Origin: Tridacna crocea
Lineage: Eukaryota; Mollusca; Bivalvia; Cardiida; Cardiidae
NCBI GenBank assembly: GCA_943736015.1
Contig: OX031073.1
Coordinates: 22,595,210 to 22,659,209, forward strand
DNA length: 64,000 nt
Direction: 5' to 3'
The translations under genes and the position numbers were made by a program. The notes under the pieces are model-generated. The model had not been told where the DNA came from and did not search any database. It saw only the letters and a list, made by a program, of their open reading frames with translations. Every line of letters begins with the position of its first letter. Positions within the stretch are counted from its first letter, which is position 1. This document shows positions 5,108 through 44,272 of the stretch, in pieces.

Positions 5108-6190
5108 GCCACTACCACACAATCCTGACTTTTAATGACACTGAGAAAGAAGCCTTTTGAAAACATTGTGGAAAAAGGAGAAAATGCTGGTAACCAGCAT
5201 TTTCTCCTTTTTCCACAATGTCTTCTACCCTTCCTAAACCAAATTTCAATTTAACCCTTCACCTAACAGTCACATTTTCTGGGCCTTGCTAAAGCAGAGT
5301 TTAATAAACTTCATTGGAAAAGCAGAAAAGCTGTTTACCAGCATTATTTCCTTTTCCCACAATCTTTTCTACCCTTCCCAGAGCAAATTTCATTTTTGGA
5401 GCCACATTTACTTTGTCATCTGCAAATGCTTTCAATTTGGTCCAGTCTGAAATTTTGTTGTTTGGTAAAGGGTTTAACATACAGTCTTTCAAAAGTATCC
5501 AGTCTGACCAACATGGATTTGATATATTGGCTATGTAACATTTCCCACAATCTTTTTTGAAACATATTTTCTACATTTAGAAGATTCATTTTTAAATAGA
5601 TTTAAAAAATCAAGGTTCTGCCTATTAGTGAAATGATTGGACATTTTCAAATTTCATGTGACAGTGCTCCAGAATGTCAACCATGGTAGATCACAGTTGC
5701 CTGTAGGTGTAATTAACAAGTTACCACTGATATAAGGAACAGTTCTGAGGAAGAAATCCTGGACAGGTATTCAGATTTTTTCTTCTTCAGCCGTTTAACA
5801 TACATCATTCCCGCAACCATGGAGGATGGGGTCATACATGCTGCCCTGAAATATACAGTACATTCAAATATTAAACCATTAAGTCTTTACCAAACCACGA
5901 AATTTTAGACTGGTCCAAATTGAAAGCACTTGCAGACGACAAAGGAAACACAACTAAAAGATTAAAATTTGTTGCCAACAGGGAAGAAGACTTTGTAGGA
6001 AAAGGAGAAAATGCTGGTTACCAGCATTTTCTCCTTTTCCCATAATGATTTCAAAAGCTTTCTATCTGAGGGTCTCAAAAACCATGGATTGTTTGGTAAC
6101 GGGTTAACCAAACAATTTTAAGTTCTTAAGACCCTGAGGTATGAAGCTTCAGTCAATTAGTTGTCTGCAGAAGCATTTGATTTCAATGAT
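5108..6190. mobile_element. Hairpin MITE cluster in CNPPD1 introns 4-5
   Basis: Copies: 5108-5255 (left end plus hairpin; both arms carry AAAAA/TTTTT where the usual sequence has GAAAA/TTTTC), 5251-5478 (full), 5879-6107 (full, 229 bp, TTAA both ends) and a fragment 6104-6190 chained to it. Exon 4 lies between the second and third copies. Confidence 0.85.
5725..5845 (-). CDS. CNPPD1: CNPPD1 coding exon 4, cyclin-box core
   Basis: One base plus 40 codons. It reads CMTPSSMVAGMMYVKRL, then KSEYLSRISSSELFLISV. Human CNPPD1 has the same layout (MM...YIERL, then SSSDLFLIS). The acceptor is ATTTCAG and the donor GTAACT. A run of five basic residues follows YVKRL. The exon ends in phase 0 next to exon 5. 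The intron to exon 3 (5846-9036) holds MITEs and a LINE inserted in one of them. Confidence 0.92.
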
Positions 6191-6636
6191 CAGAGCTCCT
6201 TTAGTACAGAAGTGAAACATGAAAAGTTCAAGGGGAGATAATTCCGCAACAAATCACAGCAGGGTCATGAAAATTGCACATGATCAAATTCATATATATT
6301 GAAACCCTTTGTGTAAATTCGAGTTCAGTACGAGAAAAACTGTTGGAATGTTGCTCAAGACAAATTTGTGTCTACAGTCAGAGGGATGGACAGATAGCCA
6401 TGGCAATTCCAGTATATCCTCCTCCACTTTGTTGTGTGGGGGGTATAAAAAAAGCCCTATGGCTAAGATCTTACGAAAGTCTAAGAACGGAAAAAAAATC
6501 TTACTAGAAAAGGAGATTTCAAGAAATGCTGAAGGGGTTACTTTACAAACCATTCTTAAGGACTTCCTTAGTTTTTTTCTACAGACTTTTCCAAACTTGA
6601 AAGCAACACAACTTCTGATTGGCTAAACCAACATTG
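6191..6636. other. CNPPD1 intron, nothing recognised
   Basis: Overlapping short ORFs of up to 105 codons on both strands show no family motif. GGGGGGTATAAAAAAAGCC at about 6440 is a chance TATA-like string inside the intron. Confidence 0.3.
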
Positions 6637-6673
6637 TTAACCATACAATCTCAAGATTTAAAGACCCTTTGAA

Positions 6674-8640
6674 TGAATGAATGAATGAATGAATGTTGTT
6701 TTATGGCGCATTGACAACTTTGGTCATTTAGCGCGCATATCTATGTTAAAAGATAATAAACGTGGAGTTGTTTAAACTGAATAAAGTTTGAATGACAATA
6801 AAAGAATTAAATTAAGAAAATTTAATGTATAAAGGGCTTCATCGAGTTACAGGGCAATCCCTATATAGTCAAATGTTTTAAATGATAAGAATTGAATTAA
6901 GAAGAATGCATAAAGGGCATTATCGAGTTACAGGGCAATCCGTATATACTCAAAAGTTTTAAATGATAAGATTTAAGAATGTGATAAAAAGGTTTAAACT
7001 CAATGCTGGTTTGATAAAAAGAAGTTTTTTAAATGAAAAAAATATGTGTCATTTATAATGTGCATAAAATATGATATTGAGTGGCTGGGTGTCCCTGCCT
7101 ACTCCAAAGCTTTAGGTTAAAAGGTAAGATTGATAATATTGTTTTTCCTTGGAAATGAGGTTAAAACTGATAAAGATTGGGGCCTCCAATGGGATAAGAT
7201 ACTCCCATTAAAGAGGTCCCGTCTCCAATGAGATAAGATGTCTCCAAGAGAGCCAATCCTCCCATTAAGGAGATGCAAACTTAATATTAATGAAGTAAAG
7301 AATGTTGTAAAAAGATGGGTAAGAAACTCCAGAGTAAATATCACAGTTTATTGTAAATGCCAATCTCCTTTATGAAAGCGATAATAGATTCAACACTGAC
7401 AGAATCAAAAAGATTTTTCAAACTATCAACGCTGAAATATTTTGAACGAACTGGCTGAAAGTCAATGCAATCTAGTAGGATATGTTTTACAGAAAAGGTT
7501 GCATTGCATGGTATACATTCAGGGGCATCATCTCTTGTCAAGAGCCAGGAATGTGTGATGCGTGAATGGCCAATTCGAAGTCGTGCAATTATCACTTCTT
7601 CTCGACGAACGGATCTGTAAACGGGATACCATTCACCAAGGGATGGTTTAACTGAATGCAGTTTATTGAAAATATCAGCATCCCACTGGGATTGCCAAGA
7701 AGATTGGATACGTGATAAAACGGAGGATTTAAAATCAGTGTGTGGAACTTTAAAATCTGAAATGGGAAGGTTAAGTGCAGATTTGGCAGACCTATCGGCA
7801 TTTTCATTGCCTTTGATGCCTACATGACTTGGAAGCCAGCAGAACACCAGTCTATTCTTAGAAGAAATTTGTGAGATCCTTTCAAGTAAACTGCAGATTA
7901 AAGGATTCTCAAGTCGTTGATTTGAAAGGGCCTGTAATGTTGACAAAGAGTCTGAAAAGATAATAAAACGGTTGGAATTAGAACTTTCAGCTAGATTAAG
8001 GGCAAGATCTACTGCTTTAATTTCAGCAGAGAAGATAGAGGAGTTGTTTGGAAGGCGGCATTTTAAGCTCCTTTGTCCATAAACAGCGGCAGCTGCTACA
8101 GAATTGCCTTCTTTAGATCCATCTGTATAGATGGGTTTGAAGGAAAAATAATGCTCCTTTATCTCGTTGTATCTAGCATGAAATACAGTTCTATCCGTGA
8201 CACACTTTTTGTCAGATGCAAGGTCAAATCTGAATTCTGCACTGTTTAGTGTCCATGGAGGGATTTCAGAGATTTTATAGTCGGCAATAGACTCGGTGTC
8301 TATGCCAAGGTTATCTACAATGGGCTCCATGCGGATACCAAATGGAGGAATAACATTTGGTTTCCTTTCAAAAAGACGTTTATATTCAGGTTTAAAGACA
8401 ACGTTGTGAGTTGGATTAAAACAATTCGACTTAAGTTTTAAAATATATTGAAGTGAGAGTTTTTCTCTCCTGTAAGAAAGGGAAGGTTCATTAGCCTCAA
8501 CATAGAGACTATTGACGGGAGAAGTTCTGAAAGCTCCAAGTACAAGACGCAGACCTTCGTGGTGTATAGAATCGAGAATTTTCAGATAGGATTTACGGGC
8601 CGATCCGTATACAACAGATCCATAGTCTAACTTGGAGCGA
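6674..8640 (-). mobile_element. 5'-truncated non-LTR retrotransposon (LINE) with RNase H
   Basis: Read on the minus strand, it enters mid-ORF at 8640, has a stop at 7341, a 3' UTR of about 670 bases with an internal ~75 bp duplication (6830-6972), and a tail of ATTC repeats ending at 6674. A 14 bp target duplication AAAGACCCTTTGAA flanks it (6660-6673 and 8641-8654). RNase H plus a C-terminal cysteine/histidine knuckle, with a tetranucleotide tail, fits the I/Nimb/Jockey side of LINEs. Exact clade not determined. Confidence 0.9.
7341..8640 (-). CDS. LINE ORF2 C-terminal part: RT thumb and RNase H
   Basis: About 433 codons of element sequence; the preceding 42 codons of the open frame come from the host MITE. 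YGSARKSYLKILDSIHHEG is the post-palm region of a LINE reverse transcriptase. RNase H follows, with its acidic residues at IYTDGS (Asp codon 8121-8123), SAEIKAVDLAL, SDSLSTLQAL and NENADRSAKS, and WLPSHVG before the last. Near the end is a zinc-knuckle-like pattern C-x2-C-x7-H-x4-C. The frame has no stop or shift, so the insertion is probably young, though the endonuclease and RT palm are absent and it cannot act alone. Confidence 0.88.
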
Positions 8641-8854
8641 AAAGACCCTTTGAAGTAAGCCTTTTGAAAACATTGTAAGAAAAAGGAGAAAACGCTAATA
8701 ACCAGCATTTTCTCCTTTTCCCACAATTTTTCTAGAATATCTGATACAAATCCAATCATTTGTGCCATATAAATTATGTCCCCTGCAAATTGCTTTCCAA
8801 TTGGACCTGTCTAAAAAATTGACTTAAAACACAAGAATAGACTGTATGCTTAAT

Positions 8855-9455
8855 GGTAGAAAACATTTTGGGAAAAGGACAAAATTCTGGCTAAAGCATT
8901 TTCTTCTTTTCCCAACATGTTTTCTGTAAGCCTCTTGCTTAAGGTTGTTAAAAGTCGGGATTGTCTGTTAAAGAGTTAAGCCTTGGATATTACAGCCAAT
9001 GGCCATGCATGAAGTATCATAAATATATGTACATACCTGGCAGTTGACGCTGCCCAATAGTGGTCCAGCCTTCCAAGTTCCTTTGGTGCTGCCTCTTGGT
9101 AATACCTGACTGCTAAATCTGAAATGAAATTAGCAGTACTTTACTGGAACAGGTGAAAGGTTGTACTCCTATACTAGATTTTTCCTACCAGCATTTGCAA
9201 ACAAAAATTTTCATGCAGCTCAAATATTATTTGTCAACTTAACCCTTTACCAAACGACAGAATTTAGACTGGTCCATTTGCAGACAACAAAATAGACATG
9301 ACTCAAAAATTGAAGTTTGTTTTCTGCAAATTATAAAACATTGTGGGAAAAGGAGAAAATGCTGGTTACCAGCATTTTCTCCTTTTCTCACGATGTTTTG
9401 AAAAGGTGTTTATCTCAGGGTTGTAAAAACCAGGGATTGTTAGGGAATGGGTTAA
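8855..9455. mobile_element. Two hairpin MITEs beside CNPPD1 exon 3
   Basis: 8855-8978 is a right part with TTAA at 8975-8978 and a worn hairpin. 9239-9455 is full length with a clean hairpin around GCTGGTTACCAGC. Exon 3 (9037-9118) lies between them. Confidence 0.82.
9037..9118 (-). CDS. CNPPD1: CNPPD1 coding exon 3
   Basis: Eighty-two bases (2 + 26 codons + 2). It reads LAVRYYQEAAPKELGRLDHY, the counterpart of the human segment around AVELLQKAAPSPIRRL, the first helices of the cyclin box. The acceptor is TTTCAG and the donor GTATGT. The two trailing bases AG join a G from exon 4 to give Arg, the residue found at this point in human CNPPD1. Confidence 0.88.
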
Positions 9456-9527
9456 ATTCTAGTTTTGACATTCATTTTCTGCTATTGGAGGGAGCTTTGA
9501 TGACCATACTGTAACACATTGCCAGAC

Positions 9528-9712
9528 ACAACAGAGCTCTAGTTAGAGGGTGTGACTGATTTCAAAATTCAATAAAATTAATTGTTCTCCTCTAAACCCT
9601 ACGTTATGGGTTCTCATAAGAATTGTCTCATGGAGACCATTCTAATGAATACCCACATGATAGGGTTTGGAAAAGAAATAATCGATTTAGAAAACCATCA
9701 CTCTGGCATGAT
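9528..9712. mobile_element. Long-palindrome element, CAGAGCTC family, copy 1
   Basis: Begins CAGAGCTCTAGTTAGAGGG and closes near ACCATCACTCTGGC. Its middle folds back: ACCCTACGTTATGGGTTCTC pairs with ACCCACATGATAGGGTTT across AATTGTCTCATGGAGACC. Copies at 34972-35168 and 39510-39703 have the same layout. Confidence 0.7.
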
Positions 9713-10036
9713 TAAGTTTTCATCACAAATAGTATTACTGATAACCACCATATTTTCCCAATTTTAACTGAACCAAAAAAGCCAAAAGTCAAATGAAAAA
9801 AAAAGCTTCGCATTGGGGCTTGTCGCTGAAATTGTTTAAAATCTAGAAAGCCTGAAGATATTCAAAATTTTAAAAATGACATGCACAACTACACATAGAG
9901 ATTCAATGTGGAAAGTTTGAACTTAATCCAATGAAACTGTACTAGTTGCATGCATAAGAAATTGCAAATGGAAAAATGGACAGATGACTGGGGCCATAAC
10001 ATAATTCGACCCTTTATGCCTATAAAAATGTGTTAC
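9713..10036. other. CNPPD1 intron between exons 2 and 3, non-repetitive part
   Basis: AT-rich sequence without an ORF or repeat that I can place. Exon 2 follows directly. Confidence 0.3.
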
Positions 10037-10124
10037 CTGTAAGTGGCAAAGAAGGCCGATCAGTCCCAGGTAGTTGACCATAATATAGGGTCTTTCTAAG
10101 TCTTTCTGTAAATTCATCATGCTC
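10037..10124 (-). CDS. CNPPD1: CNPPD1 coding exon 2
   Basis: Eighty-eight bases, entered in phase 0 and left after one base of a codon. The translation EHDEFTERLRKTLYYGQ matches the vertebrate stretch ending RLYYG that leads into the cyclin fold. The acceptor (TGTACAG at 10130-10125 on the minus strand) and donor (GTAACA from 10036) are canonical. The last base G completes an Asp codon with exon 3. Confidence 0.85.
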
Positions 10125-10269
10125 CTGTACATAAAACAAAAAGAAGTTCATTTGAAAATTCTACAGCAGTACCAACATTTAAACCACCTGGTAAAATACG
10201 AGAATCTGTGATCTCCAGTCCAACAGAAGAGCTGGGTTGAGGTTTGATTATCATTTTAAGAACTGTTAA

Positions 10270-19819: not shown

Positions 19820-21122
19820 AACACTGCTTATGTCATGGCGGGGTTTCCGTCGTCCGTCTGTCCGTCCGTTCTTTTCTTGTTTACGCAATAAAGTCTGCAT
19901 TTGTTGTCAGATTTTTGTGAAACTTGCAGAGTTTGTTTATCTCATCAATAGCTTGAACCCTATTGATTTTGAGAAAAATCCAACAAACAATATTGGAAAA
20001 GTAGCCATTTCAAGTTGAAAATTTCCAATTCTTGTTTACACGATAAAGTCTTCATTTGTTGTCAGATTTTCGCGAAACTTGCACAATTTGTTTATCTCAT
20101 CAATAGCTTCAACCCTATGATTTTGAGAAAAATCCCAAAAACAGTATGGGTAAAGTAGCCATTTCAAGTTGAAAATTTCCAATTCTTGTTTACGCGATAA
20201 AGTCTTCATATGTCGTCAGATTTTCGTGAAACTTGCACAGTTTGTTTATCTCATCAATAGTTTTAACCCATTACCACTCAATCCCTACTTTTGACGCCCC
20301 TGAGAAAGAAGCCTTTTGAAAACACTGTGGGAAAAGGAGAAAATGCTGGTAACCAGCATTTTCCCCTTTTCCCACAGTGTTTTCTAGCCTTTCCAGAACA
20401 AGTTTCTATTTTTCAGTCACCTTTTTTTTTGTCGTCTGCAAATGCTTTCAATTTGGACCAGTCCAAAATTTTCTTGTGTGGTAATGAGTTAACCCTATAG
20501 ATTTTGAAAAAAATGTGACAAACAGTATTGGAAAAGTAGCCATTTCAAGTTAAAAATTTACATTTCTTGTTTACGCAATAAAGTCTTTATTTTAGGTCAG
20601 ATTTCCATGAAACTTGCAGAGTTTGTTTATCTTATCAATAGCTTCAACCCTATTGATTTTGAAAAAATTCCAACAAAGAGTATGGGAAAAGTAGCCATTT
20701 CAAGTTGAAAACTTTCATTTCTTGTTTACGCGATTAAGTCATTTTTGGTCATTTTTCTGTGAAACTTGGAGAGTTTGTTTATCTCATCAATAGCTTTAAC
20801 CCTATCGATTTTTAAAAAAATCTGACAAACAGTATGGGAAAAGTGGTCTTTTCAAATTGAACAATTTCATTGCCTGTTTACATGATAAAGTATTTATTTG
20901 TGATCAGATTTTATGAATTTTTCAGCTTGTTTATCCCATCAATAGTTTTTTAACCGGCTGTTGAGTTTGAAAAAATTCAACCAACAGTAATGGAAAAGTA
21001 GCCATTTTGAGTTGAAAATGTCAATTGTTTTTGTCTTTTTGCGTAATGAATTCCTATGTATGCTTTATTTAAAAGCAAACTCTCTGTCAGTAGAGCATAT
21101 TCAGGCCCTTCAGGGCCTTCTA
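19820..21122 (+). mobile_element. Array-bearing Helitron/Helentron-like element, ~154 bp units
   Basis: GTCCGTCTGTCCGTCCGTTC leads into six units marked by CTTGTTTACGCRATAAAG at about 19876, 20032, 20186, 20568, 20721 and 20871. A MITE (20263-20492) interrupts unit three. The right end has the hairpin GGCCCTTCAGGGCC followed by TTCTAGTTTC. Same architecture as the families at 24432 and 60137 but with a different unit. Confidence 0.65.
20263..20492. mobile_element. Full-length hairpin MITE inserted in a tandem repeat unit
   Basis: TTAA at both ends, 230 bp. The interrupted unit reads ATCAATAGTT-TTAA ... TTAA-CCCTAT, while an uninterrupted unit at about 20785-20800 reads ATAGCTTTAACCCTATC, so the empty site has one TTAA. 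Arms match across CACTGTGGG/CCCACAGTG; one arm has CCCC for CTCC. Confidence 0.92.
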
Positions 21123-22386: not shown

Positions 22387-24137
22387 TTAACCCTTTACCA
22401 AACAATCCCTGGTTTTTATGACCCTGAGAAAGAATCCTTTTGAAAACATTGTGGGAGCAGGAGAAATGCTGGTTACCATCATTTTCTCCTGTTCCCACAA
22501 TGTTTTCTACCCTGGTGGAAACAAATTTTAAATTTTTGTGTTAATGTTTATTTTGTCGTCTGCTAGTGCTTTCAATTTGACCAGCCTAAAATTTTGTTGT
22601 TTGGTAAAGAATTTAATTTTATTAAGTAGGATATGGGTTCACTCTTTACCAAACGACAAAATTCTGGACTGGTCCAAATTGAAAGCATCAGCAGACGACA
22701 AAATAAACGTAACTCTAATATTAAAATTTGTTTCTAGTAGGGTAGAAAACATTGTGGGAAAAGGAGAAAATGCTGGTTACCAGCATTTTCTCCCTTTCCT
22801 ACAATGTTTTCAAAAGCTTTCTTTTTCAGGGTGGTTAAAAGACGGGATTGTGTGGTAATGGGTTAAGGGAAATAAGATGGAAGGGTAAAGAAAGGTCAGA
22901 CAGGTTTTGCAGGCTTACTCATGGGTGAATATTAGCCAGAGCTGTCTTACTCTCAACCCAGTATGTTACAAATACTGTTTAACTCTTTACCACACAATGA
23001 TTACTTTTGATGACCCTGAGAAAAAAAGCCTTTGAAAACATTGTGGGAGAAGGAGAAAATGCTCCTGTTCCCACAATGTTTTCTATCCTTCACAAAACAA
23101 ATTCCAAATTTTCATTCACTTCAATTTTTTCGTCTGCAAATGCTTTTGATTTGGACAAGCCTGAAATTTTGTCATTTGGTAATGAGTTAACTCTAGCTCC
23201 TGAATCAAATCAAATCACAGCTTGTCTATTGAACCATTAGAAACCAGAATATAACTAACGTAAGTTTTCATTTTAGAAGTATGACCTAGATAATAACTAT
23301 TTCATATTTGCTTTTATTTACAGTGTTTCAGCAAAGACAGGCAGTGTTTATATGTTACAACAGGCAATAAGCTCTTTACCGTACTGTAAAATTCTAGATT
23401 TGTCCAAGTTGAAAGCATTTGCTGACCAAAAACTATATGCAACATGCACTACGCTGTCTGTCATTGGGTAGAAAACATCGTTGGAAAAGGAGAAAATGCT
23501 GGTATCCAGGATTTTCTCCTTTTCCAACAGTGTTTTCCAAAGGCTTCTTTTTCATTGTCTTTAATAGTCGGCATTGTGAGGTAGAGGCTTTAAGATCCAT
23601 TTCCACTGGTCATTTTACTGATCAGTGTTACAATGTAACATATTATAAAACCATACATGATACATGCCACATTATTATAGATTTAGGGTGAATCTTTTAG
23701 GGTGATCCCTTGCAATTTTTGAGTAGTATATATGGCTGATATAAGAAGTTTATGTTCTGAATGTAACAAAAAAACCAGTCTGTTTATATTAGATACAGTA
23801 AAATGTGTTTCTGTATATAAATCATAACATAATGTCAGCTACCCATTTACTATCTGACAAACAGAGGTTAGGGATTGGCTGAATTCACTCTCAGGAGGCT
23901 GACTGAATTAGACATTGTTGACACTTAACTCTTTACAACACAATCCTGAGTTTTCATGACCCTGTGGAAGAGGCAGTTTGAAAACATTGTGGGAAAAGGA
24001 GAAAATGCTGGTTACCAGCATTTCCTCCTTTTCCCACTATGTTTTCTACCCTGCTGGAAACAAATTTCAATTTTTGTTGAGTTATGTTGATTTTGTTGTC
24101 TGCAAGAGTTTACAATTTGTCATTTGGTAAAGGGTCA
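22387..24137. mobile_element. Hairpin MITE cluster in DIP2 intron 1
   Basis: Copies: 22387-22616, 22639-22866, 22979-23190 (core and part of both arms lost, GAAAATGCTCCTGTTCCC), 23368-23591 (arms GTTGGAAAAGG/CCTTTTCCAAC, both altered to match) and 23925-24137 (core GCTGGTTACCAGC). Orientation alternates. Confidence 0.87.
23592..23924. other. DIP2 intron 1, nothing recognised
   Basis: AT-rich, no ORF above 60 codons, no repeat matched elsewhere in the window. Confidence 0.3.
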
Positions 24138-24265: not shown

Positions 24266-26162
24266 TCAACCCATTACCACACAGTCGCGTCTTTTAACGA
24301 CCCCGAGGAAAAGGCTATTGAAAACATTGTGGGAAAAGGAGAAAATGCTGGTAACCAGCATTTTCTCCTTTTCCCACGATGTTTTCTACCGTTCCATGAG
24401 CAAATTGAAATGTTTGAGTCAAATCTTTTTTAGCTCCACTGGCCGAAGGCCAGCGGGCTTATGTCGAGGCCCGTTGTCCGTCATGCGTCCGTCCGTCCGT
24501 GCGTCCGTGCGTGCGTCCGTCTGTGAGTTAACTTTTTCTTTAAACATCTACTTCTCTGAAACTACCCATCCAATTTTGATGAAACTTCACAGAAATGATC
24601 CTGCCATGGTCCTCTTCAGAATTTCTTGAAAGAATTTAATTCCTTCAAAAACTCTGGTTGCCATGGCAACAAAACTGAAAAATTTTGAAAATCTTTGAAA
24701 ATCTTCTTGTCTGAAACCGTAAGGCCTAGGGCTACCAAATTTTGCATGTAGCTTTATCTAGTGGACGTCTACCAAGTTTCTTCAAATTATAGCCCTGGGG
24801 TCAAAATTGGCTCCGTCCCGGGGGTCACAAGTTTTACATGGGCTTATTTAGGGAGAACTTTAAAACTCCTCTTCTACCTAGGCATAGGGCCTAGGGCTAC
24901 CCAATTTCGGATGTTGTTTTATCTAGTGGACCTCTACCAAGAGTGTCTAAATTATAGCCCGGGGGTCAAAATTGGCCCGGCCCCGGGGGTACCAAGTTTT
25001 ACATGGGCTTATATAGGGAGAACTTTAAAATTCTTCTTCCACCTAGCCATAGGGCCTAGGGCTACCAAATTTGGCATGTAGCTTTATCTAGTGGACCTCT
25101 ACCAAGGGTGTCCAACTTATAGCCCAGGGGTCAAATATGGCCCCGCCCCAGGGGGTAACAAATTTTACATGGGCTTATATAGGGAATACTTTCAAAATCT
25201 TCTCGCACCTAGCTAAAAGGGCTAGGGCTATCAAATTTTGCATGTAGCTTTATCTAGGGGGTCTCTACCAAGGGTGCCCAAATTATAGCCCTGGGGTCAA
25301 ATTTAGCCCCGTCACAGGGGGTCACAAGTTTTACATCGGCTTATATAGGGAAACTTTAATAATCTACTTGTACATAGCCATAAGGCCTAGGGCTACCAAA
25401 TTTTGCATATAGCTTTATCTAATGGGCCTCTACCAAGAGGGCCCAAATTTTAACTTTGGGGATCAAGTTTGACCCCACCCCAGGGGTCACAAGTTTAACA
25501 TTGGCTTTATAAACCTGTCTCATGGGTCACATATTTTACAGGGCCTTTTATTGAGCAAACTTGTTTTACAGGGCTTATTGGGCAAGATTCAAAAATCTTC
25601 GTGGTTATAACCACACATTCTAGTTTCATATTGTAGGTCTGGGGTCAAAATTGGCTCCATCCAGGGATCACAAGTTTAACATGGGCTTCAAAATATAATC
25701 ACTTCAATTTAAACATTAATCAAGGGAAATAACTCTTTTTATGAAAGATAAAGTTTGGTACTATTTACCTCCCTTGAGTATCAAACTACATTGATACATG
25801 ATTGGTGCTAGACATTAAGTTTTTTGATAGAAAATGTTCTGTTTTCAAGTGTGATTCATGTTGATGCTAATAGTTATGCTCACATGAGGTGAATGATAAT
25901 TTCAGAGTAAGGTTTCTATCATTCAGCTTATTTTTCCAAGGATTTTACCTTTCATGCTAATGAATTAACAAGCTTGTACTGCCCGACAGTGTTCATTGTT
26001 TTTGAAGGCCCTCTTTTTTATGGTCACGAACACTTGAATTTGTGTGGTAAAGGGTTAAAAAGCCAGTGGAGCGATACAGGGCCATCATGGCCCTCTTGTT
26101 TTAATTTGCAAATGCTTTTAATTTGGCAAAGTCTAAAATTTTATCATCTGGTAAAGGGTTAA
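24266..26162. mobile_element. Hairpin MITE split by an array-bearing element
   Basis: The left part (24266-24431) has the terminus, hairpin and right arm. The remainder (about 26101-26162) is GCAAATGCTTTTAATTTGGC ... GGTAAAGGGTTAA. The interruption lies in a T tract after the right arm. The left target copy reads TCAA, the right TTAA. Confidence 0.85.
24432..26101 (+). mobile_element. Array-bearing Helentron-like element (AGCTCCACTGG family), copy 1
   Basis: Starts AGCTCCACTGGCCGAAGGCC after TTTTT, then a GTCCGTCCGTGCGTCC run, then about five units of ~165 bp marked by GGCCTAGGGCTACCAAATTT, a non-repeated 3' part, GCCAGTGGAGCG (inverse of the start) and the hairpin GGGCCATCATGGCCC before TCTTGTTTT. 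Subterminal inverted repeats, a central array, a 3' hairpin and insertion in T runs describe Helentron-associated (DINE/HINE-like) elements. No protein is encoded; the ORFs are array by-products. Confidence 0.65.
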
Positions 26163-27307: not shown

Positions 27308-27735
27308 AGGGCTAATTCTTCAACAGATCACTAAATTTTAGACTTTCCAAATAGACGGCTTCTGTAGACAACAATATAATTGTGACTCGGAAATAGAAAT
27401 TCTCCTTTGAAAGGATAGAAAAACATTGTGGGATAGGGAGAAAATGTTACGTACCAGCATTTTCTCCTTATCCCACGTTTTCAAAAGGGTTTGTGCCTAG
27501 GGTTGTTTTACCCATTGCCACACAATCCCTACTTTTGACGACTTTGAGAAAGAAACCTGTAGAAAACATTGTGGAAAAAGGAGAAAATGCTAGTATCCAG
27601 CATTTTCTCCTTTTTCCACAATGTTTTCTACCCTTCATAAAACAATTTCAAATTTTCACTATCACTTTCATTTAGTCGTCTGCAAATGCTTTGAATTTGG
27701 ACAAGCGAACATTTTGTCATTTGGTAATGAGTTAA
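27308..27735. mobile_element. Two hairpin MITEs, one eroded and one clean
   Basis: About 27308-27507 is worn (core GTTACGTACCAGC). 27507-27735 is clean; both arms have GGAAAAAGG/CCTTTTTCC instead of GGGAAAAGG/CCTTTTCCC. The core is GCTAGTATCCAGC, a rare asymmetric centre. Confidence 0.85.
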
Positions 27736-27805: not shown

Positions 27806-28570
27806 AGGTGGGTATTTAGAATTTTCACATCACACCAAATAAAAAATATATATATATCATTGAAATTTATATGAAAAAACAATACAAATCATCAATAATT
27901 AAGAATAATAAAATTACAGAAACAAAAAGTTTTGGTGGTATTCCCTTAAAAGGCTACGTAGCCTCTTAAGCTATTTTTAGATTTCACGCCAAAAATCAAT
28001 AAAGCATTGTGGGAATGTCAGATGACTGGCACGTGACTGCTGACGCTTAAATTCCTTTACATAAGAAAAGTGTAATAATTATTTTCCATAATGTCTTCTT
28101 TGGACGGATGTTAGAAACTTTGTCTGTGTTTTCATGTATTTAACCCATTACCACACAATCCCTACTTTTGACGCCCCTGAGAAAGAAGCCTTTTGAAAAC
28201 ACTGTGGGAAAAGGAGAAAATGCTGGTAACCAGCATTTTCTCCTTTTCCCACAGTGTTTTCTACCCTCACCAGAACAAATTTCTATTTTTTAGTTACCTT
28301 TATTTTGTTGTCTGCAAATGCTTTCAATATGGACCAGTCTAAAATTCTATCGTGTGGTAAAGAGTTAAATGAGCGAATTGATAATCTAAAAATAGAACGT
28401 GTCTCCCGTTGGTGTCATACTGGTCCGTAATAAATCTGTAATTTCTTGTGTTATCGGATGGTTTTCGACTACTGGGGTTTTGTGAAGGCAAATTAAAAGG
28501 CTGTGGGAGTATAAGGATGATTTTTTTGCATTTTTTTAAAATTTTCGTTCCAGAATCTGAAGGGCCACCT
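27806..28570 (+). mobile_element. AGGTGG-ended element, copy 2, with a nested MITE
   Basis: 765 bp including the MITE at 28140-28368; without it about 540 bp, the length of copy 1. Ends AGGTGGGTATTT and GGGCCACCT, TTAA on both sides. The ATG corresponding to copy 1's ORF is at about 28091 but the frame closes quickly. Confidence 0.87.
28140..28368. mobile_element. Full-length hairpin MITE nested in AGGTGG copy 2
   Basis: 229 bp, TTAA at both ends. The 67-base palindrome (28195-28261) is perfect apart from its centre: GAAAACACTGTGGG pairs with CCCACAGTGTTTTC. Three layers are visible: MITE in AGGTGG element in older MITE. Confidence 0.93.
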
Positions 28571-31038: not shown

Positions 31039-32010
31039 TTAATCCTTTTTCAGACAAGCCCTTGTTTTCACGATCTTGAGAAAGTAGGCTTTTTAATACA
31101 ACTGTGGAAACAGGAGAAAATGCTGGTAACCAGCATTTTCTCCATTTCTCACAATGTTTTCTACCTTCTCAAAGAAAGGATTGATCGTTTGGTCTGCAAA
31201 TGCTTTTATTTTGGACAAGTGCAAAATACTGTTTTCTTGTAATGATTTAACTCTTTACCAAATGACGTAATTTTAGACTAGTCCAAATTGAAAGCATTTG
31301 CAGACGACAAAATAAAAGTGAAAAATTGAAATATGTTTTGGGAAGGGAAGAAAACATTGTAGGAAAAGGAGAAAATGCTGGTTACCAGCATTTTCTCCTT
31401 TTCCCTCAATGTTTTCAGAAGGCTTCTTTTTCAGGGTTGTTAAAAGTCAGGATTGTGTAGTAAAGAGTTAAAAGGATGAAAAGGAAATGAGTGTATCCAT
31501 TGATTAGGAAGTTGACCATAGGAAACTTTGTAGTTTTATTGAGTATGATAAAATCTCTCTTCCAAGCGACAAAACTTTGGACCCAAATGGCAAGCATTTG
31601 CAGAAGACTTACCATTTGTAGCTTAAATAACAATTTCTGTCTTTGGTTGAGTAGAAAACATTGTGGGAAAAGGAGAATATGCTGGTGAACAGCCTTGTTT
31701 CTCAACCCTTTATCTATGTCCAACTTCAGAGCAGCAGTAAATGCAGTCGAACAATTTTGAGTTGACCAAATGGAGCATTTACAGTTGACAAATCATTTGT
31801 AGCTCAAATGATGATGTCTGTCTTTGATACAGTAGAAAACATTGTTGGAAAAGGAGAAGATGCTGGTTACCAGCATGTTCTCCTTTTCCAACGATCTTTT
31901 AAAAGCCTTTTTTTCCTAACCCTTTACCTCATGATGAGTATTAGATTTGTCAAAATTCAGAGCAGTTGCTGACAAGAAATAAAATGTGGCTCAAATTGTG
32001 AGAGTTATCA
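31039..32010. mobile_element. Hairpin MITE cluster, chained and partly truncated
   Basis: 31039-31250 and 31247-31471 share TTAA. About 31549-31700 stops at the palindrome centre, about 31745-31918 is full with arms TTGTTGGAA/TTCCAACGA, and about 31916-32010 is a left end. The last three share TTTGTAGCTCAAATNATG and form their own subgroup with the insert in 32773-33133. Confidence 0.78.
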
Positions 32011-32032: not shown

Positions 32033-33607
32033 TCACTCTTTACCCCAAAAAATTTAGACATGTTCAAATTGAAAGCATTTGCAGACGACAAAATAAAAGT
32101 GACTGAAAAATTGAAATTTGTTCTGGGAAGGGTAGAAAGCATTGTGGGAAAAGGAGAAAATGCTGGTTACCAGCATTTTCTCCTTTGCCTACAGTGTTTT
32201 CAACAGGCTTCATTCTCGGGGGCGTCAAAAGTAGGGTTTGTGTGGTAATGGGTTAAAGCAATTTCTCCTTTTCCCACAGTGTTTTCAAACATGGTCTCCC
32301 TTCCAGATGGTAAAAATTCTGGATTATTCGATAAAGAGTTAAGATTGTTGAAAAACTGGGATTGTTTGGTAAAGGGTTAACCCATTACCACACAATCCCT
32401 TCTTTTGACGCCCATGAGGAAGAAGCCTTTAGAAAACATTGTGGGAAAAGGAGAAAATGCTGGTAACCAGCATTTTCTCCTTTTCCCACAATGTTTTTCT
32501 ACCCTTCTCAAAACAAATTTCAAATTTTCGGTCAACTTTTATTCTGTTGTCTGCAAATGCTTTCGATTTGGACAAACCTAAAATTTACTCCTTTGGAAAT
32601 GAGGGATTATACAGAGAGGAAGTGATTTTGATGAAAATGATGTGACTCAGAGAGACTACTGATATCTGTAGATCAGGTCAGGGGTGACATGCCTACCATG
32701 TATTGGCAACAGAGTACAGTGGTTACCAACACCTACAGTCATCTGATCCTTGCTTTGACAAAGCGGGGTTTTAAAACCCATTACCACACAGTCTTTAGTT
32801 TTGACGCCCCTGAGAAACAAGCCTTTGGAAAACAAATCATTTGTAGCTCAAATAATGATGTCTGTCTTTGATAGAGTAGAAAACATTGCTGGAAAAGGAG
32901 AAAATGCTGGTAACCAGCATTTTCTGCCTTTCCCACAATGTTTTCTACCTTTCACAAAACAAATTTCAAATTTTCAGTCACTTTAATTTTGTCGTCTGCA
33001 AATGCTTTTGATTTGGACAAACCTAAAATTTTCTCAATGATGGGTGAGTGCAACACTATTCTAAGTGCCTGTAAAATGTACAAGCACTTAGAATAGTGTT
33101 GCACTCACCTATTGTCATGTGGTAATGAGTTAACTCTTTACCAAACAACAAAATTTTGGACCTGTCCAAATTTAAAGCATTTGCATACGACTGAATCAAT
33201 GTGACTCAAAAATTTGAAGTGGATTTGGGAAGGGTAGAAAACATTGTGGGAAAAGGAGAAAATGCTGGTTATCAGCATTTTCTCCTTTTCCTACAATGTT
33301 TTCATAAGGTTTCTTTCTCAGGGTCGTTAAAAGTTGGGATTATGTGGTAAAGAGTTAATACATCTCCATAATGAATTATCCCTTTACCACACAGTCCCAA
33401 CTCTTAACGATCCTGAAGGAGGAGGCTTTGGAAAACGCTGTTGGAACAGGAGAAAATGCTGGCAACCAGCATTTTCTCCTTTTCCAACCGCGTTTTCTAC
33501 CCCGTATCAAAGGTAGAAATAATCATTTTGAGATACATTTTATTTGTTGTCTGCAAGTGCTTTTCAATTGGATAAGTCCGGAATTTTGTCGTGTGGTGAA
33601 GGGTTAT
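32033..33607. mobile_element. Hairpin MITE cluster before DIP2 exon 3
   Basis: 32033-32255 (full), 32256-32342 (type C right half starting at the palindrome centre, AGCAATTTCTCC), 32343-32380 (end fragment), 32377-32605 (full, right end worn), 32773-33133 (carries a subgroup insert and a 67 bp foldback), 33130-33358 (full, chained) and 33376-33607 (TTAT on both sides; arms GTTGGAACAGG/CCTTTTCCAAC). Confidence 0.85.
33043..33109. repeat. Perfect 26 bp foldback inside a MITE
   Basis: GGTGAGTGCAACACTATTCT then AAGTGC pairs without mismatch with 33084-33109, across a 15-base loop. Neighbouring MITEs lack it at this place, so it is a small insertion. The stem's perfection suggests it is recent. 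Confidence 0.9.
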
Positions 33608-35397: not shown

Positions 35398-36146
35398 TTA
35401 ACTTTTTACCAAACCACAACATTTTAGACTAAGTAGTCCAAATTGAAAGCATTAACAGACGACAAAATAAAAGTGACTGAAAAATTGAAATTTGATTTGG
35501 GATGGGTTGAAAACAGTGTTGAAAAAGAAGATAATGCTGGTTACCAGCATTTTCTTCTTTTCCCACAATATTTTCAAAAGGCTCTTTTCCCAGGATCGTT
35601 AACAGTCGGGATTGTGTGATAAAGAGTTAACCTTTTCCCACACAATGAAGACTTTTGACGACCCTTTGAAAGAAGCCTTTTGAAAACATTGTAAGAAAAG
35701 GAGAAAATGCTGGTAACCAGCATTTTCTCCTTTTCTCACAATGTTTTCTACCCTATCAATAAACAATTGTACCATTTGAGCCACATTGAAATAGTTGTCT
35801 GCAAATGCTTTCAATTTGGACAGGGCTATAAATTTGTCCTCTACAAATGCTTTCAATTTGGACTGGGCTATAAATTTGTCGTCTGGTAAAGAGTTCAAAG
35901 TTCCTTTCAGGACTATAGTCAACCCCTTCCCAAACAACAAATTCTAGACTCTTCCAAACTAAAAGAGTTTGTAGACGACATAATTAACTTTCATAACAAT
36001 GGCAGAAAATTATCTGAACGGGCAGAAAACACTGCGGGAAAAGGAGAAATTGCTCATTACGAGCAATTTCTCCTTTTCCCACAGTGTTTTCAAAAGACTT
36101 GTGCTACAGACAGGTAAAAACAAGGGCTTGTTTGGGAAAGGGTTAA
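35398..36146. mobile_element. Two chained type A MITEs and a type C MITE
   Basis: 35398-35630 and 35627-35896 share TTAA; the second has an internal tandem duplication of CAAATGCTTTCAATTTGGAC. 35919-36146 is type C: core AAATTGCTCATTACGAGCAA, ends CCCCTTCCCAAAC / GGGAAAGGG. Type C ends 63 bp before the candidate DIP2 microexon. Confidence 0.87.
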
Positions 36147-36209
36147 TGTTTTATCTGAGAGCTGCTCAAATAAATCAAGAGTGTATGATTTTTGTTTTCC
36201 ATTGAACAG

Positions 36210-38045: not shown

Positions 38046-38152
38046 ATTATGGCAGCTTTATTATGCTATCTTGTAGAAAGGTATTAGCTCTTGCCCGAAA
38101 ATATTTTCACTGAAGTTTGTTGAAGGTTTCATGCAATGGATGATAATGTAGG

Positions 38153-39422: not shown

Positions 39423-39509
39423 ACACAATTTCATTTTAGTACATTTGATTCTGGAATGATACTAAGAATGGTTGGTGAATATCGACCTCAGATTTCTGTA
39501 TTTCATCGC

Positions 39510-39703
39510 TCTAGATAACAGGGAGTGATGGTATTCAAAATCCATTATTTCTGTTCCAAACCCTATGTTGTGGGTACTCATTAGAATCGTCTCAATGAGA
39601 CAATTCTAATGAGTACCCACAACATAGGGTTATGTGAAAAATTATTGAGATTTTCACTTTTGAAATCAAAATCACTCCCTCTGTCTCAGGAGCTCTGAGA
39701 TTT
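39510..39703. mobile_element. Long-palindrome element, CAGAGCTC family, copy 3
   Basis: The clearest copy: CCCTATGTTGTGGGTACTCA then TTAGAATCGTCTC faces an almost perfect inverse, flanked by GGGAGTGATGG and AATCACTCCC and by GCTC at the edges. Confidence 0.87.
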
Positions 39704-39856
39704 GCGCATATGTCTTTAAAAGCAATCATCAATAAAATCGTCTAATTCATGTAGTGTTGGTATATAGTTATGAAATATGGGAATAATTTTGACTATCTAT
39801 GCACAACTTGGAATTTGTGCCCACTTGATTCTGCACAAACATAGTACTGGTTTTAC

Positions 39857-40081
39857 TTCACCCTTTACCCCATAAGGCATTTCTATGGTCTCTCTAATTG
39901 ACCCTAAATAACAGCAAGGATGAAACCGTTTCCTATGTTTATATGAAACCTTTTGAAAGCATAGAAAACATTGTGATAAATGATGAAATTGTGACGAGCA
40001 ATTTCACCTTTTGCCACAATGTTTTCCAAAGGCTCCTACAAGCAATGCCTAGAAATGAGTATCTATGGAGTGAAGGGTTAA
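39857..40081. mobile_element. Hairpin MITE, type B
   Basis: Reverse orientation relative to 11160-11392. One side of the hairpin is shortened (GATGAAATTGTGACGAGCAA). TTCA at the left, TTAA at the right. Confidence 0.85.
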
Positions 40082-40160
40082 TACAGCATTGGTGATTTTC
40101 GTTATAAAGTTTGCCTATAATCCTATTCCTGTACACAATGTATCTAGGCCTATGAAATCT

Positions 40161-40781
40161 TTAACCCATTACCACATAATCCCTACTTTTGATGACCCTT
40201 AGAAAGAAGCCTATAGAAAATATTGTGGGAAAAGGAGAAAATGCTGGTAACCATAATTTTCTCTTTTTCCCTCGTAATGTTTTCTACCCTTTACAAAACT
40301 ATTTTCCAATTTTCAGTCACTTTTATTTTGTCGTCTGCAAATGCTTTTGTCATCTGGTAATGAGTTAGTCACCATATCATACAACCAAATGTTTGGATTT
40401 CTCCAAATTGAAATCATTTGCAGATGACACAATGAATGGGACCCAAAAACTAAAAGATTTTTTTGGAAGGGTAGAAAACATTGTGGGATAAGAATAGTAT
40501 CAAAAGGCTTCTTTCATAGAGTCGTAAAAAGTCGGGAATGTGTGGTAAAAGGTTAACTCATGACCAAAATGTCAGTATTTTAGGCTTGTCTAAATCAAAA
40601 GCATTTGCAGATGACAAAATAAAAGAGACTAAAATTTTAAATTTGTTTTGTTTGGAGTAGAAAACATTGTGGAAAAAGGAGAAAATGCTGGTTACCAGCA
40701 TTTTCTCCTTTTTCCACAATGTTTTCTAGAGGCTTCTCTCTCAGGGTTGTCAAAAGTAGGGATTGTGTGGTAAAAAGTTAA
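40161..40781. mobile_element. Three chained hairpin MITEs
   Basis: 40161-40368, 40365-40556 (core lost) and 40553-40781 (clean; GGAAAAAGG/CCTTTTTCC arms). The first junction is TTAG, the second TTAA. Confidence 0.85.
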
Positions 40782-41177
40782 ATAAATAGAAACTGACAGA
40801 ATAGGAATGTAGTCATGGCTGTAATTTGTGGTTGCTGTTGTGACTGACTAGACAATACAAGGACAAAAAGGGGAATATCTATCACATCTTTTTCTTATTT
40901 CCAACATAAAAGGGTTTCTTTTTGTGTGAAATGTGAGCCTGTTCTACTGTAGACTGTTATATTTATTTTGCCATTTGAAAAAAAACTTCCTTTATTTTTC
41001 TAAACCTCAAAGCTTCTTAGCAGGACTGAAGGAAGTTAACCCTATACTTAGTACAGATAACTGTCCCCAAGGGCGATGTTACTTTTCGACTGGTCGCCTC
41101 TGGGTACAGAGACAATCCGGACAAAATCAGTTGAAAGTTCCGCACAGATTTTGTGCTAATTTCCAAAATAGATAAGG
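40782..41177. other. DIP2 intron with a 60 bp segment repeated at 56525
   Basis: 41045-41110 (AGTACAGATAACTGTCCCCA then GATGTTACTTTTCGACTGGT) recurs inverted at about 56525-56585. The rest is unassigned. Confidence 0.55.
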
Positions 41178-41892
41178 TGTAACTCTTTACTACACAATCC
41201 CGATTTCTGACGACCCTGAGGAAAAGGCCTTTTGAAAACATTGTTGGAAAAGGAGAAAATGCTGGTAACCAGCATTTTCTCCTTTTCCAAACAATGTTCC
41301 TCCTAGGGGTTGTAAAAAGTGTCGGCTTGTGTTCAAAATACTAGTAATTGCCTGTTTCTGGCAAAGCGCTGGTGGGGCCGTCACATTCAGTAACAGCTCT
41401 AGTTTTTGACCAGTCTTTTATGTCATGTGGTAAAGAGTTAACCTTTTATCGAACAATGCCTGGTTTCTTTGACCCTGAGATGGAAGCCTTTTGAAAACAT
41501 TATGGCAAAAGGAGGAAATGCTTGTAACCAGCATTTTCTCCTTTTCCCACAATATTTTCTACCCTGCTGGAAACAAATTTAAATTTTTTTAGTTACGTTT
41601 ATTTTGTCATCTTCAAATGCTTTCAGTTTGGGCCAGGCTAAAATTTTGTTGTTTGGTAACAGGTTAACCCTTTACTCCATAGATACTCATTTCTACGCAT
41701 TGCTTATAGGAGCCTTTGGAAAACATTGTTGCAAAAGGTGAAATTGCTCGTGACGAGCAATTTCACCTTTTGCCACAATGTTTTCTACACTATCAAAAGG
41801 TGTCATATACACATAAGAAACGGCTTCATCCTTGCTGTTATTTAGGGTCAATTAGAGATAACATAGAAATGCCTTATGGGGTAAAGGGTTAA
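41178..41892. mobile_element. Chain of three hairpin MITEs, types A, A and B
   Basis: 41178-41441 (right side partly replaced by unrelated sequence), 41438-41667 and 41664-41892 (type B, core TTGCTCGTGACGAGCAA intact), linked through shared TTAA at 41438 and 41664. Different subfamilies in one chain show that a copy's end serves as target for another type. Confidence 0.88.
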
Positions 41893-42060
41893 GGGAACCA
41901 TGTCATTCCCTTGATAAGTATCTGTCTTCAATGGGGATATGTGGGAGGGATGTTTTTTTGAAACGCCAATTATGTCCTTGAGATTGTAGGGACTCTCTTT
42001 TCCAAGCGAAGAGTATAGGTCGAAGATTGAACTTCAGGATTTGTGCAGTCTGATATTAAT

Positions 42061-42631
42061 TTAACTCTTTACCAAACAACAAAATTTTAGACTGGTCCAA
42101 ATTGAAAGAACTTGCAGACGAAAAAATTAATGTAACTGAAAAACCGAAATTTGTGCTAGATATGGTAGAAAACACTGTGGGAAAATTTAACTTTTTACCA
42201 GAAGGCAAAATCTGAGCACTGTCCAAATTGAAAGCATTTGCTCGAGACAATTTCTATAGGCCTCAAATAGGCCAAGTTTTCTCTGATAGTGTTGAAAACA
42301 TTGTGGAAAAAGGAGAAAATGCTGGATACCAGTATTTTCTCCATTTACCACAATGTTTTCAAAAGCCTTCTCCCTCAGGGTTGTAAAATGTTGGAATTGT
42401 GTGTTTAAATCTTTCCCAAACAACAGATTTTGGACCCTTCCAAACTGAAAGAGTTTGCATACCACAATTTTAGATTTGCAGAAAATTGCAGAAAGTTCTC
42501 AAGAAGGGTAGAAAACACTGCGGGAAAAGGAGAAATTGCTCGTTACAGTCAATTTCTCCTGTTCCCACAGTGTTTTCAAAGACTTTTACTGCAGACATGT
42601 AAAAACCAGGGCTTGTTTGGTAAAAGGTTAA
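42061..42631. mobile_element. Chain of three hairpin MITEs, types A, A and C
   Basis: 42061-42190 is cut within the left arm (CACTGTGGGAAAA then TTTAAC), 42187-42408 is complete, 42405-42631 is type C (core GAAATTGCTCGTTACAGTCA, right arm slightly altered). Shared TTAA at 42187 and 42405. Confidence 0.85.
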
Positions 42632-42754
42632 GGTTAAGCATTGACCTAACCTTACAAAATTATGTAATATAGACTATAATGTTCTGTTTGGAATCAAAAC
42701 CAGAATGCTGAAAAACTTCAGGTTATTGTTGTTGTTGTTAAGAATTCTCTCTGC

Positions 42755-42860
42755 CAAGCTGGTAGTGTAGTTCAGAGATCAGACTGCACATTTTGAGCAT
42801 CTGATCTTGAATTACACAGGCTGTAAAGGCAACTGAAGTTGTTAAAGGCGCTTTTCTTTT
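42755..42860. repeat. GATC/CAGACTG foldback element, copy 6
   Basis: AGTGTAGTTCAGAGATCAGA against ATCTGATCTTGAATTACACA: the arms match each other at TTCA/TGAA, where copies 1 and 3 have GATC. Confidence 0.7.
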
Positions 42861-42886
42861 AGGGTGTGAATTTTTCAGTGAAGTGG

Positions 42887-44272
42887 TTAACCCTTCACCT
42901 TACAATGATGACTTTTACGACCCTTGAAAGAGAAGGCTTTTGAAAAAATTGTGGAAAAAGGAGAAAATGCTGGTTACCAGCATTTTCTCCTTTTCCCACA
43001 ATGTTTTCTACCAGGAATCAAAGAAAAGTAATTTGGTATGAGTCACAATGAAACTGTTATCTGCAAAGCTTTGAATTCAGAGAAGTCTAAAATTTTCTCG
43101 TGTGGTAAAGGGTTAAGTTAGTAGGAAGTGATTGAAACCATATGGAGTCAGGACCAACCTGTCATACAGTGAATTTGCATCTAATACTTTTAGACCCAGC
43201 ATATTATATAACATTAACTCTTTATCACAAAATCTCTAGTTTTACAGACCCTGATAGAAATAGTTTTTGAAAACATTGTGGGAATAGGTGAAAATGCTAT
43301 TAACCAGAATCTTCTCTTTTTAGCACTGGTCATTAGCAGTATTCCCCTTTTTCCACAATGTTTTCAGAAGCCTTCTCTCTCAGGGTCAGTAAAAGTCGTG
43401 ATTACATGGTATGGGCATAAGAAAAGACCTAGGTGTCATAACTTCAAGATTTTATTTTTTTGTCACAATCATTATGTCACAGAATATAGGATATACGGCT
43501 TTGTACACTGATTCTCTGTGCACTCTGATCCTGCATGGGCAACTTTCAGTCGAATCAACTCATTACGAAACGACAAAATCTTGCACTGGTCCAAACTGAA
43601 AGCATTTGCAGGTGACAAAATAAATGGGGTTGAAAATTTGAAATTTGTTTTGTGAATGGTAGAAAACATTTTTGGAAAAGGAGAAAATGCTTGTTATTGG
43701 CATTTTCTCCTTTTTCCATAATGTTTTCTAAAGGCTTCTTTCTCCGGGTCATCAAAAGTAAGGATTGTGTAGTAATGGGTTAAGACAGATATGCATAGGA
43801 TTTAAGTCTGTACCACACAATCCTGACTTTTAAAGACCTCCTTAAGAAAGAAGGCCTTTTGAAAATATTGTCGGAAAAGAAGAAAATGCTGGTAACCAGC
43901 ATTTTCTCCTTTTCCCACAATGTTTTCTACCCTTCATAACACATATTTCAAATTCTTGTTCACTTTTATTTTGTCGTCTGCAAATGCTTTCGATTTGGAC
44001 AAACCTAAAATTTTGTTGTTTGGTTATGAGTTAAAGCTCTTAAACCAGACATAAAAAGATCTTCGAACTTATCCATATCAAAAGCATAGTTCTATATATA
44101 AGAAATTGTGGGTGAGATGATTGAATCATTGTACATGTATAGAGCAGAAAACATGATGGGAAAAGGAGAAAATGCTGGTTACCAGCATTTTCTCCTTTTC
44201 CCATCATGTTTTCAAAGCCCCTGAGAGACTTCTTCTGTCAGGGTCATGAGAACACTGAGGTACAGGGTGTAA
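42887..44272. mobile_element. Hairpin MITE cluster in the long DIP2 intron
   Basis: 42887-43116, 43215-about 43415 (worn), 43555-43783, 43802-44034 and about 44036-44272. In the last, the termini are worn but 44147-44213 is a perfect inverted repeat, 33 bases per arm with one base between, with GATGGG/CCCATC in both arms instead of GTGGG/CCCAC. Confidence 0.87.

What the first reader, a model, noticed from the sequence alone, without database searches (positions are those of the whole stretch)
5108..44213. The two hairpin arms carry matching substitutions copy by copy
Many copies depart from GTGGGAAAAGG/CCTTTTCCCAC, and the departure is present in both arms: GGAAAAAGG/CCTTTTTCC (5170, 27570, 40670), GTTGG/CCAAC (23480, 31845, 33440), CACTG/CAGTG (20320, 28200, 53630) and GATGGG/CCCATC (44155). 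44147-44213 is perfect although its termini are eroded. Independent decay should produce mismatched arms. Arm-to-arm correction through a cruciform or hairpin, or selection on a folded RNA, would explain it; inheritance from several source copies is the null.
Basis: partly seen in the sequence, partly recalled or inferred. Interest (0 to 1): 0.82.

Follow-up and report, generated by a model that had tools for sequence, protein, structure and literature searches.

The report
Hairpin arms copy each other's mutations
A very abundant 229-base mobile DNA element in an unnamed animal genome carries a 67-base palindrome, and while some of its matched two-arm changes are simply inherited, others arose repeatedly in unrelated copies, as expected if one arm is occasionally used as the template for the other.

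Summary
In detail: all ten cited copies carry the same change in both arms. They fall into two classes.

(1) Inherited. CACTG/CAGTG (20320, 28200, 53630) and the AATTGCTCG core mark subfamilies: on a tree of the flanks, 26 CACTG copies need 8 changes and 19 A26T copies need 3.

(2) Recurrent. Matched G12A, G12T, G13A, G14A, G20A, G22A and the two-base 44147 variant sit on scattered flanks. The 44147 variant has 10 copies genome-wide, in seven flank clusters at threshold 0.8. The same two bases occur in one arm only in 70 copies; independent hits would give about 0.01 matched copies. Single-base matched doubles are 9.2 and 5.8 times expectation at pairs 20 and 22, against 1.4 for two-arm doubles at unpaired sites.

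So arm-to-arm copying is well supported, most simply by template switching (quasi-palindrome correction). It is a minority process: 285 one-arm changes against 18 matched non-subfamily changes in 76 window copies. Its direction and tract length are not settled. The mechanism is known; the scale of this natural experiment is new. The element is a MITE with piggyBac-like TTAA ends.

The parts
49666..49894 (-). Complete 229-bp element with the consensus palindrome; TTAA at both ends, inverted ends TTAACYCWTTACCA
49773..49839 (.). Perfect consensus palindrome, 33-bp arms around a single central base
   Evidence: folded as single-stranded DNA -37.2 kcal/mol, z -16.6
28140..28368 (+). Complete 229-bp element of the CACTG subfamily
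28195..28261 (.). Palindrome with T8C in both arms: inherited subfamily marker
20318..20384 (.). Palindrome with T8C in both arms: inherited subfamily marker
53625..53691 (.). Palindrome with T8C, A26T, G31C in both arms: second inherited subfamily
44147..44213 (.). Palindrome with T9G and G10A in both arms; one of 10 such copies in the genome, on scattered flanks
5159..5225 (.). Palindrome with G14A in both arms
27562..27628 (.). Palindrome with G14A in both arms
40660..40726 (.). Palindrome with G14A in both arms, arms otherwise perfectly matched
23471..23537 (.). Palindrome with G12T in both arms
31835..31901 (.). Palindrome with G12T in both arms
33431..33497 (.). Palindrome with A7G, T8C, G12T in both arms
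35509..35575 (.). Palindrome with G20A in both arms

Best explanation
Two processes are layered. (a) A 229-bp non-autonomous element with TTAA ends was spread by several source lineages, each with its own perfect palindrome; their differences (T8C; A26T with G31C; probably G14C with A21T) appear matched in both arms because they were copied with the element. (b) In addition, each copy gathers ordinary one-arm substitutions, and a minority of these are then written into the other arm (or erased, which cannot be seen) because one arm serves as template for the other. The likeliest route is intramolecular template switching: the growing strand has copied through the centre, folds back on its own inner stem, is extended along the first arm, then returns to the normal template. 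Shown: excess of matched doubles over unpaired controls, and their scattered origin. Suggested only: copying outward to the arm end. Inferred: the polymerase route and its timing; hairpin or cruciform mismatch repair is not excluded.
For: Genome-wide counts in a 35-base core (pairs 17-33), 166,719 unchanged copies. G20A: one arm 6059 and 6039, both 2029, expected 219.5, ratio 9.2. G22A: 2139 and 2085, both 154, expected 26.8, ratio 5.8. G28A: 2549 and 2473, both 110, expected 37.8, ratio 2.9. Controls, the same substitutions at unpaired sites in the two arms: ratios 1.45 and 1.42, 1.44 and 1.36 (ratios). Two-base 44147 variant: one arm 37+33, both arms 10, expected about 0.01-0.02. Flank tree of 264 rows, labelled copies and fewest changes: 44147 variant 10 and 10, G22A 21 and 21, G28A 20 and 20, G12A 6 and 6, G12T 7 and 7, G13A 6 and 6, G14A 4 and 4, G20A 28 and 25, one-arm G22A 20 and 20; against T8C 26 and 8, A26T 19 and 3. 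Matched G20A copies have fewer outer-arm mismatches than one-arm G22A copies (1.46 and 2.68, p 0.021). In 17 copies chosen by T8C-type flanks: 22 one-arm, 3 matched, 0 unmatched two-arm changes.
Against: No sister species or parent-offspring comparison, so no event is seen before and after. Co-copying of neighbouring pairs is only suggestive: pairs 1-5, not fixed by the search, are matched in 10 of 10 copies of the 44147 variant, against 32 of 47, 31 of 45, 6 of 15, 17 of 25 or 24 of 31 control copies by definition of control (p 0.049, 0.050, 0.003, 0.07, 0.16; the p 0.0037 wrongly counted pair 6, which the pattern fixes). The gradient with distance from the centre is uneven: 12.4% at pair 20 but 2.7% at pair 22, and part of pair 20 is inherited (five of 26 fetched matched G20A copies share a CTGGAAAAG-type left flank; one one-arm G20A copy has it too). 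In the sample the outermost bin (pairs 1-7) shows no significant excess (9 against 5.6, p 0.11). Matched and one-arm G22A copies do not differ significantly in outer mismatches (1.79 and 2.68, p 0.15). G28A doubles look largely like coincidences in old copies. Four of the ten 44147-variant copies (L033, L035, L036, L037) have similar flanks (pairwise 0.78-0.95; the closest pair is closer than in 99.2% of random draws), so the variant may have seven origins rather than ten. Flank trees on about 130 bases are weakly resolved.
Confidence: 0.75

Rival explanations
1. Inheritance from several source copies explains all matched variants.
For: True for T8C (mean within-group flank similarity 0.764 against 0.592 for random copies, 0 of 1000 random draws as high; 8 tree changes for 26 copies) and A26T (3 changes for 19). 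Part of G20A too (28 copies, 25 changes) and perhaps four of the ten 44147-variant copies.
Against: Other matched variants have flanks on average no more alike than random copies (44147 variant 0.621 against 0.592, p 0.29; G22A p 0.21; G20A p 0.19) and need as many, or nearly as many, tree changes as copies. The search pattern for the 44147 variant returned 10 copies and the flanks of all 10 were examined, so sparse sampling does not explain that case.
Confidence: 0.09
2. Hairpin or cruciform extrusion followed by mismatch repair within the stem, rather than polymerase template switching.
For: Gives the same matched doubles. The folded single strand is very stable.
Against: Predicts inner pairs corrected as readily as outer ones; the control-adjusted excess is 1.1% at pair 28 against 2.7% and 12.4% at pairs 22 and 20, and 10 of 80 for pairs 9+10. 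But only four places in the stem were measured genome-wide and the trend is uneven.
Confidence: 0.28
3. Exchange of whole palindromes between copies (interlocus gene conversion) puts rare matched cores on new flanks.
For: Palindrome and flank types are sometimes mixed (e.g. 32879-32945).
Against: T8C stays tied to its flanks: of 17 copies chosen by flank, 15 carry it in both arms and two in one. A core with 10 copies would have to be donor at least six times among hundreds of thousands.
Confidence: 0.07
4. Selection on a folded RNA or DNA hairpin keeps the pairs matched.
For: The palindrome is conserved across flank subfamilies. In the 17 T8C-flank copies the arms (2.5% per site) are less diverged than the right flank (6.3%), though equal to the left flank (2.45%).
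Against: One-arm changes far outnumber matched ones (582 to 36 in 169 copies). No Rfam family reaches its threshold in the window. Selection copy by copy on hundreds of thousands of insertions is implausible; it may act on source lineages.
Confidence: 0.05

Closest known systems
Template-switch arm homogenisation of short inverted repeats (quasi-palindrome correction)
   Same: One arm becomes the template of the other; neighbouring bases can change at once; events recur in parallel lineages. Abraham and Hazkani-Covo 2021 (PMC8604942, passages read).
   Different: There: 39 yeast protein-coding genes with strain phylogenies, and ten spacer inversions. Here: one element with 166,719 counted copies of one core in an animal genome; the centre base shows no excess of A to T among its changes (14 of 27, against 117 of 226 at arm A sites), which fits an intramolecular route.
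Template switching that creates and maintains RNA hairpins (Monttinen and Loytynoja 2022)
   Same: Compensatory stem changes in one mutation event (PMC8794818, outline with abstract and section 8 read).
   Different: There: RNA genes by ancestral reconstruction. Here: dispersed repeat copies, with unpaired two-arm changes as control.
piggyBac-like MITEs
   Same: TTAA at both ends, short inverted ends, 229 bp, very high copy number.
   Different: An internal 67-bp palindrome lies off centre, 55 bp from one end. No transposase was linked to it here. The piggyBac likeness of the ends is recalled, not searched.

Membership tests
Quasi-palindrome correction by template switching | One-arm variants are copied into the other arm above what independent hits give | tested here: met
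   Ratios 9.2, 5.8 and 2.9 against 1.36-1.45 in unpaired controls; two-base variant 10 against about 0.01-0.02
Quasi-palindrome correction by template switching | Events are separate, on terminal branches | tested here: met
   Flank tree, and flank clusters; indirect, since loci and not alleles are compared
Quasi-palindrome correction by template switching | A tract is copied, so neighbouring pairs match too | tested here: inconclusive
   Pairs 1-5 matched in 10 of 10, against 6 of 15 to 24 of 31 controls, p 0.003-0.16; G22A p 0.15, G20A p 0.021
Quasi-palindrome correction by template switching | Correction depends on position in the stem (outer more than inner) | tested here: inconclusive
   1.1, 2.7, 12.4% at pairs 28, 22, 20 and 10 of 80 at 9+10, but no significant excess in the outermost bin of the sample
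Quasi-palindrome correction by template switching | Intermolecular switching inverts the spacer | tested here: not met
   Centre A to T is 14 of 27 changes, as at other A sites; argues only against the intermolecular form
Quasi-palindrome correction by template switching | Imperfect ancestor and perfect descendant of one locus observed | not testable with these tools
   No relatives of this genome are held
piggyBac-like MITE | TTAA target duplication | tested here: met
   67 of 222 copies show both ends, 129 left, 88 right, at up to 2 substitutions (the pattern includes the TTAA itself); similarity stops near there. Empty sites were not examined
piggyBac-like MITE | Short inverted ends, small size | tested here: met
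   TTAACYCWTTACCA at both ends, median 229 bp
piggyBac-like MITE | Shared ends with an autonomous piggyBac transposase | not tested

The most novel reading that the evidence does not exclude
This element is a natural assay of template switching: hundreds of thousands of near-identical 33-bp-arm palindromes in one genome record how often a substitution in one arm is written into the other, with a rate that rises outward from the hairpin tip and reaches about one in eight substitutions, so that perfect covariation of stem pairs arises in abundance with no selection.
Probability: 0.45. Interest if true: 0.75.

Novelty: new variant of a known kind. Interest (0 to 1): 0.6.

Why it matters
Matched changes on both sides of a stem are usually read as proof of selection for a folded RNA. 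Here they arise repeatedly in scattered repeat copies for which such selection is implausible. The number of copies would let the rate, direction, tract length and position dependence of arm-to-arm copying be measured in an animal germ line. It also warns that subfamily trees of palindromic elements built on the palindrome itself can group copies wrongly.

Tried and rejected
Inheritance alone: rejected for the scattered variants, kept for the subfamily ones. Chance double hits with unequal copy age: measured by unpaired two-arm controls at 1.36-1.45; accounts for about half of the G28A doubles (53.5 of 110), not for G22A, G20A or the 44147 variant. Spacer inversion as a mark of intermolecular switching: no excess. 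Matched outer ends of the 44147 variant: first taken as strong, but that count included pair 6, which the search pattern fixes; redone on pairs 1-5 it is only suggestive, and confidence was lowered slightly for it. A lax flank definition of the CACTG subfamily (75 copies) mixed subfamilies; the strict set has 17. Fewer outer-arm mismatches in matched than in one-arm G22A copies: right direction, not significant. RNA family: none at gathering threshold in the window. Host: not identified; 18 contigs of 40-77 Mb and 145-165-bp tandem repeats suggest a mollusc, from recall only. Literature: seven searches; among the rows listed (not all hits) no title concerned this element or arm correction within a MITE. 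Only PMC8794818 and PMC8604942 were opened, in part. Rows dropped: copies scoring under 54 of 67 were left out of the pair counts; copies with likely indels were dropped (numbers given there); three duplicate copies from overlapping loci L005/L006 were (172) and removed from then on (169). The one-arm G20A and G28A copies could not be fetched, so G22A is the only one-arm comparison group.

Full report
What it is. The window is C18:22595210-22659209 of a 1.05-Gb genome in 31 contigs; the first 18 are 40-77 Mb long. It holds about 100 copies of a 67-base palindrome: arms of 33 bases around a single base, mostly A in element orientation (142 of 169). The palindrome sits off centre in an element whose similarity ends about 55 bases to one side and about 107 to the other. 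The ends are TTAACYCWTTACCA and its complement; 67 of 222 copies show both, with a median length of 229. Two complete examples are 28140-28368 and 49666-49894. TTAA plus such ends recalls piggyBac-derived MITEs (from recall); no transposase was linked to it. One form of the palindrome alone, GTGGGAAAAGG...CCTTTTCCCAC, occurs 131,144 times, and 18 arbitrarily placed 10-kb stretches hold 107 copies, which extrapolates to roughly 6e5.

The observation. All ten cited matched variants are there. They are the selected side of the picture. Of 76 well-aligned window copies, 5 have perfectly matched arms. There are 285 one-arm changes, 35 matched changes at five subfamily sites (T8C, A26T, G31C, G14C, A21T), 18 matched changes elsewhere and 15 unmatched two-arm changes.

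Subfamilies. These are inherited. Of 17 copies chosen by T8C-type flanks, 15 carry T8C in both arms and two in one.

Scattered matched changes. The remaining matched variants behave otherwise. Counting exact patterns over the whole genome in a 35-base core, the unchanged form has 166,719 copies. G20A is in one arm in 6059 and 6039 and in both in 2029, where independence gives 219.5. G22A: 2139, 2085 and 154 against 26.8. G28A: 2549, 2473 and 110 against 37.8. To allow for unequal age of copies, the same substitutions were counted in the two arms at places that do not pair: 130 and 131 for 20+28, 109 and 105 for 20+22, ratios 1.36 to 1.45. All three paired ratios exceed this.

The case at 44147. 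The two-base change TG to GA at pairs 9-10 is found in one arm only in 37+33 copies and in both arms in 10; chance would give about 0.01-0.02. The other nine copies were fetched. Their flanks belong to different types. The flank tree needs 10 changes for 10 copies; by flank similarity at 0.8 there are seven clusters, one of four copies (L033, L035, L036, L037), about as many as for ten random copies (8.0). Even seven origins are far beyond chance. Pairs 1-5, which the search pattern did not fix, are matched in all 10 (L035 after allowing for a one-base central deletion). Among other copies with matched pairs 6-20 this holds for 32 of 47 (p 0.049); other control definitions give p 0.003 to 0.16. 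Three of the ten keep changes near the centre (L035, L039, L040), and one carries an extra matched change at its outer end (A5T, L037).

Age. Coincident double hits should sit in old copies. G28A doubles do: their flanks are further from any sampled copy (median best similarity 0.679 against 0.795 for matched G22A, p 0.0038) and their outer arms carry more mismatches (3.17 against 1.79, p 0.010). Matched G22A and G20A copies are no older by flank than one-arm G22A copies (p 0.55 and 0.96; all). So pair 28, five pairs from the centre, shows much coincidence, while pairs 20, 22 and 9-10 look like single events.

Rate. After removing the control level, the matched share is 1.1% at pair 28, 2.7% at 22 and 12.4% at 20; at 9+10 it is 10 of 80 (12.5%, interval 6-22%). 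Pair 20 is inflated by inheritance: five of 26 fetched matched copies share a CTGGAAAAG-type left flank and 28 copies need 25 changes. In the 17 copies with T8C-type flanks, 3 of 25 changes are matched; their arms (2.5%) are as diverged as the left flank (2.45%) and less than the right flank (6.3%). In the sample of 169 copies, matched changes against control-scaled expectation by bin: pairs 1-7, 9 against 5.6; 8-14, 19 against 7.4; 15-22, 5 against 1.7; 23-33, 3 against 1.7. The trend is outward from the centre but not at the outer end.

Mechanism. The pattern is what template switching on a quasi-palindrome should give: a polymerase that has passed the centre folds back on the inner stem and copies the first arm. 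Such arm homogenisation has been described in phage, bacteria and yeast (PMC8604942, passages) and proposed to maintain RNA stems (PMC8794818, abstract and one section). The lack of centre inversion (14 A-to-T among 27 centre changes, as at other A sites) fits the intramolecular form. Repair of a cruciform stem would also work but should treat inner and outer pairs alike; the data lean against that without excluding it. The single strand folds into an almost fully paired hairpin (-37.2 kcal/mol, z -16.6).

Verdict. The effect is a minority process of a known kind, seen here on an unusual scale and with an internal control.

Noticed in passing
window 46184-47233: Tandem arrays of 32- and 48-bp units containing TTTTAACCCTTTACCATACAGC, close to the element's own left end (TTAACCCTTTACCA), repeated many times without the palindrome.
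   Followed up: no
L026 near 2061 and L012 near 1019: Short duplications at the hairpin tip (GCTGGTCACCTGCTGGTGACC; AATGCTGGTAATGCTGGT), as if the tip slips or is recopied.
   Followed up: no
window 32879-32945: Copy with what looks like a right-type flank on both sides of the palindrome, suggesting recombination between elements through the palindrome.
   Followed up: no
window 61903-63539, minus strand: Transposase-like reading frames with CENP-B_N, HTH_Tnp_Tc5 and DDE_1 domains, in two overlapping frames.
   Followed up: partly
window 7341-8810, minus strand: 489-aa open frame with an RNase H domain, probably part of a retroelement.
   Followed up: partly
window 13-1489, 24720-25511, 57316-57645, 60229-61416: Tandem arrays of 145-165-bp units, of the kind recalled from molluscan genomes.
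   Followed up: no
L079, L062, L077, L045, L094: Some copies chosen for one matched change carry a further matched change elsewhere in the arm (A5G+A7C, T11A, G14A, G13T, A15T; read off).
   Followed up: partly
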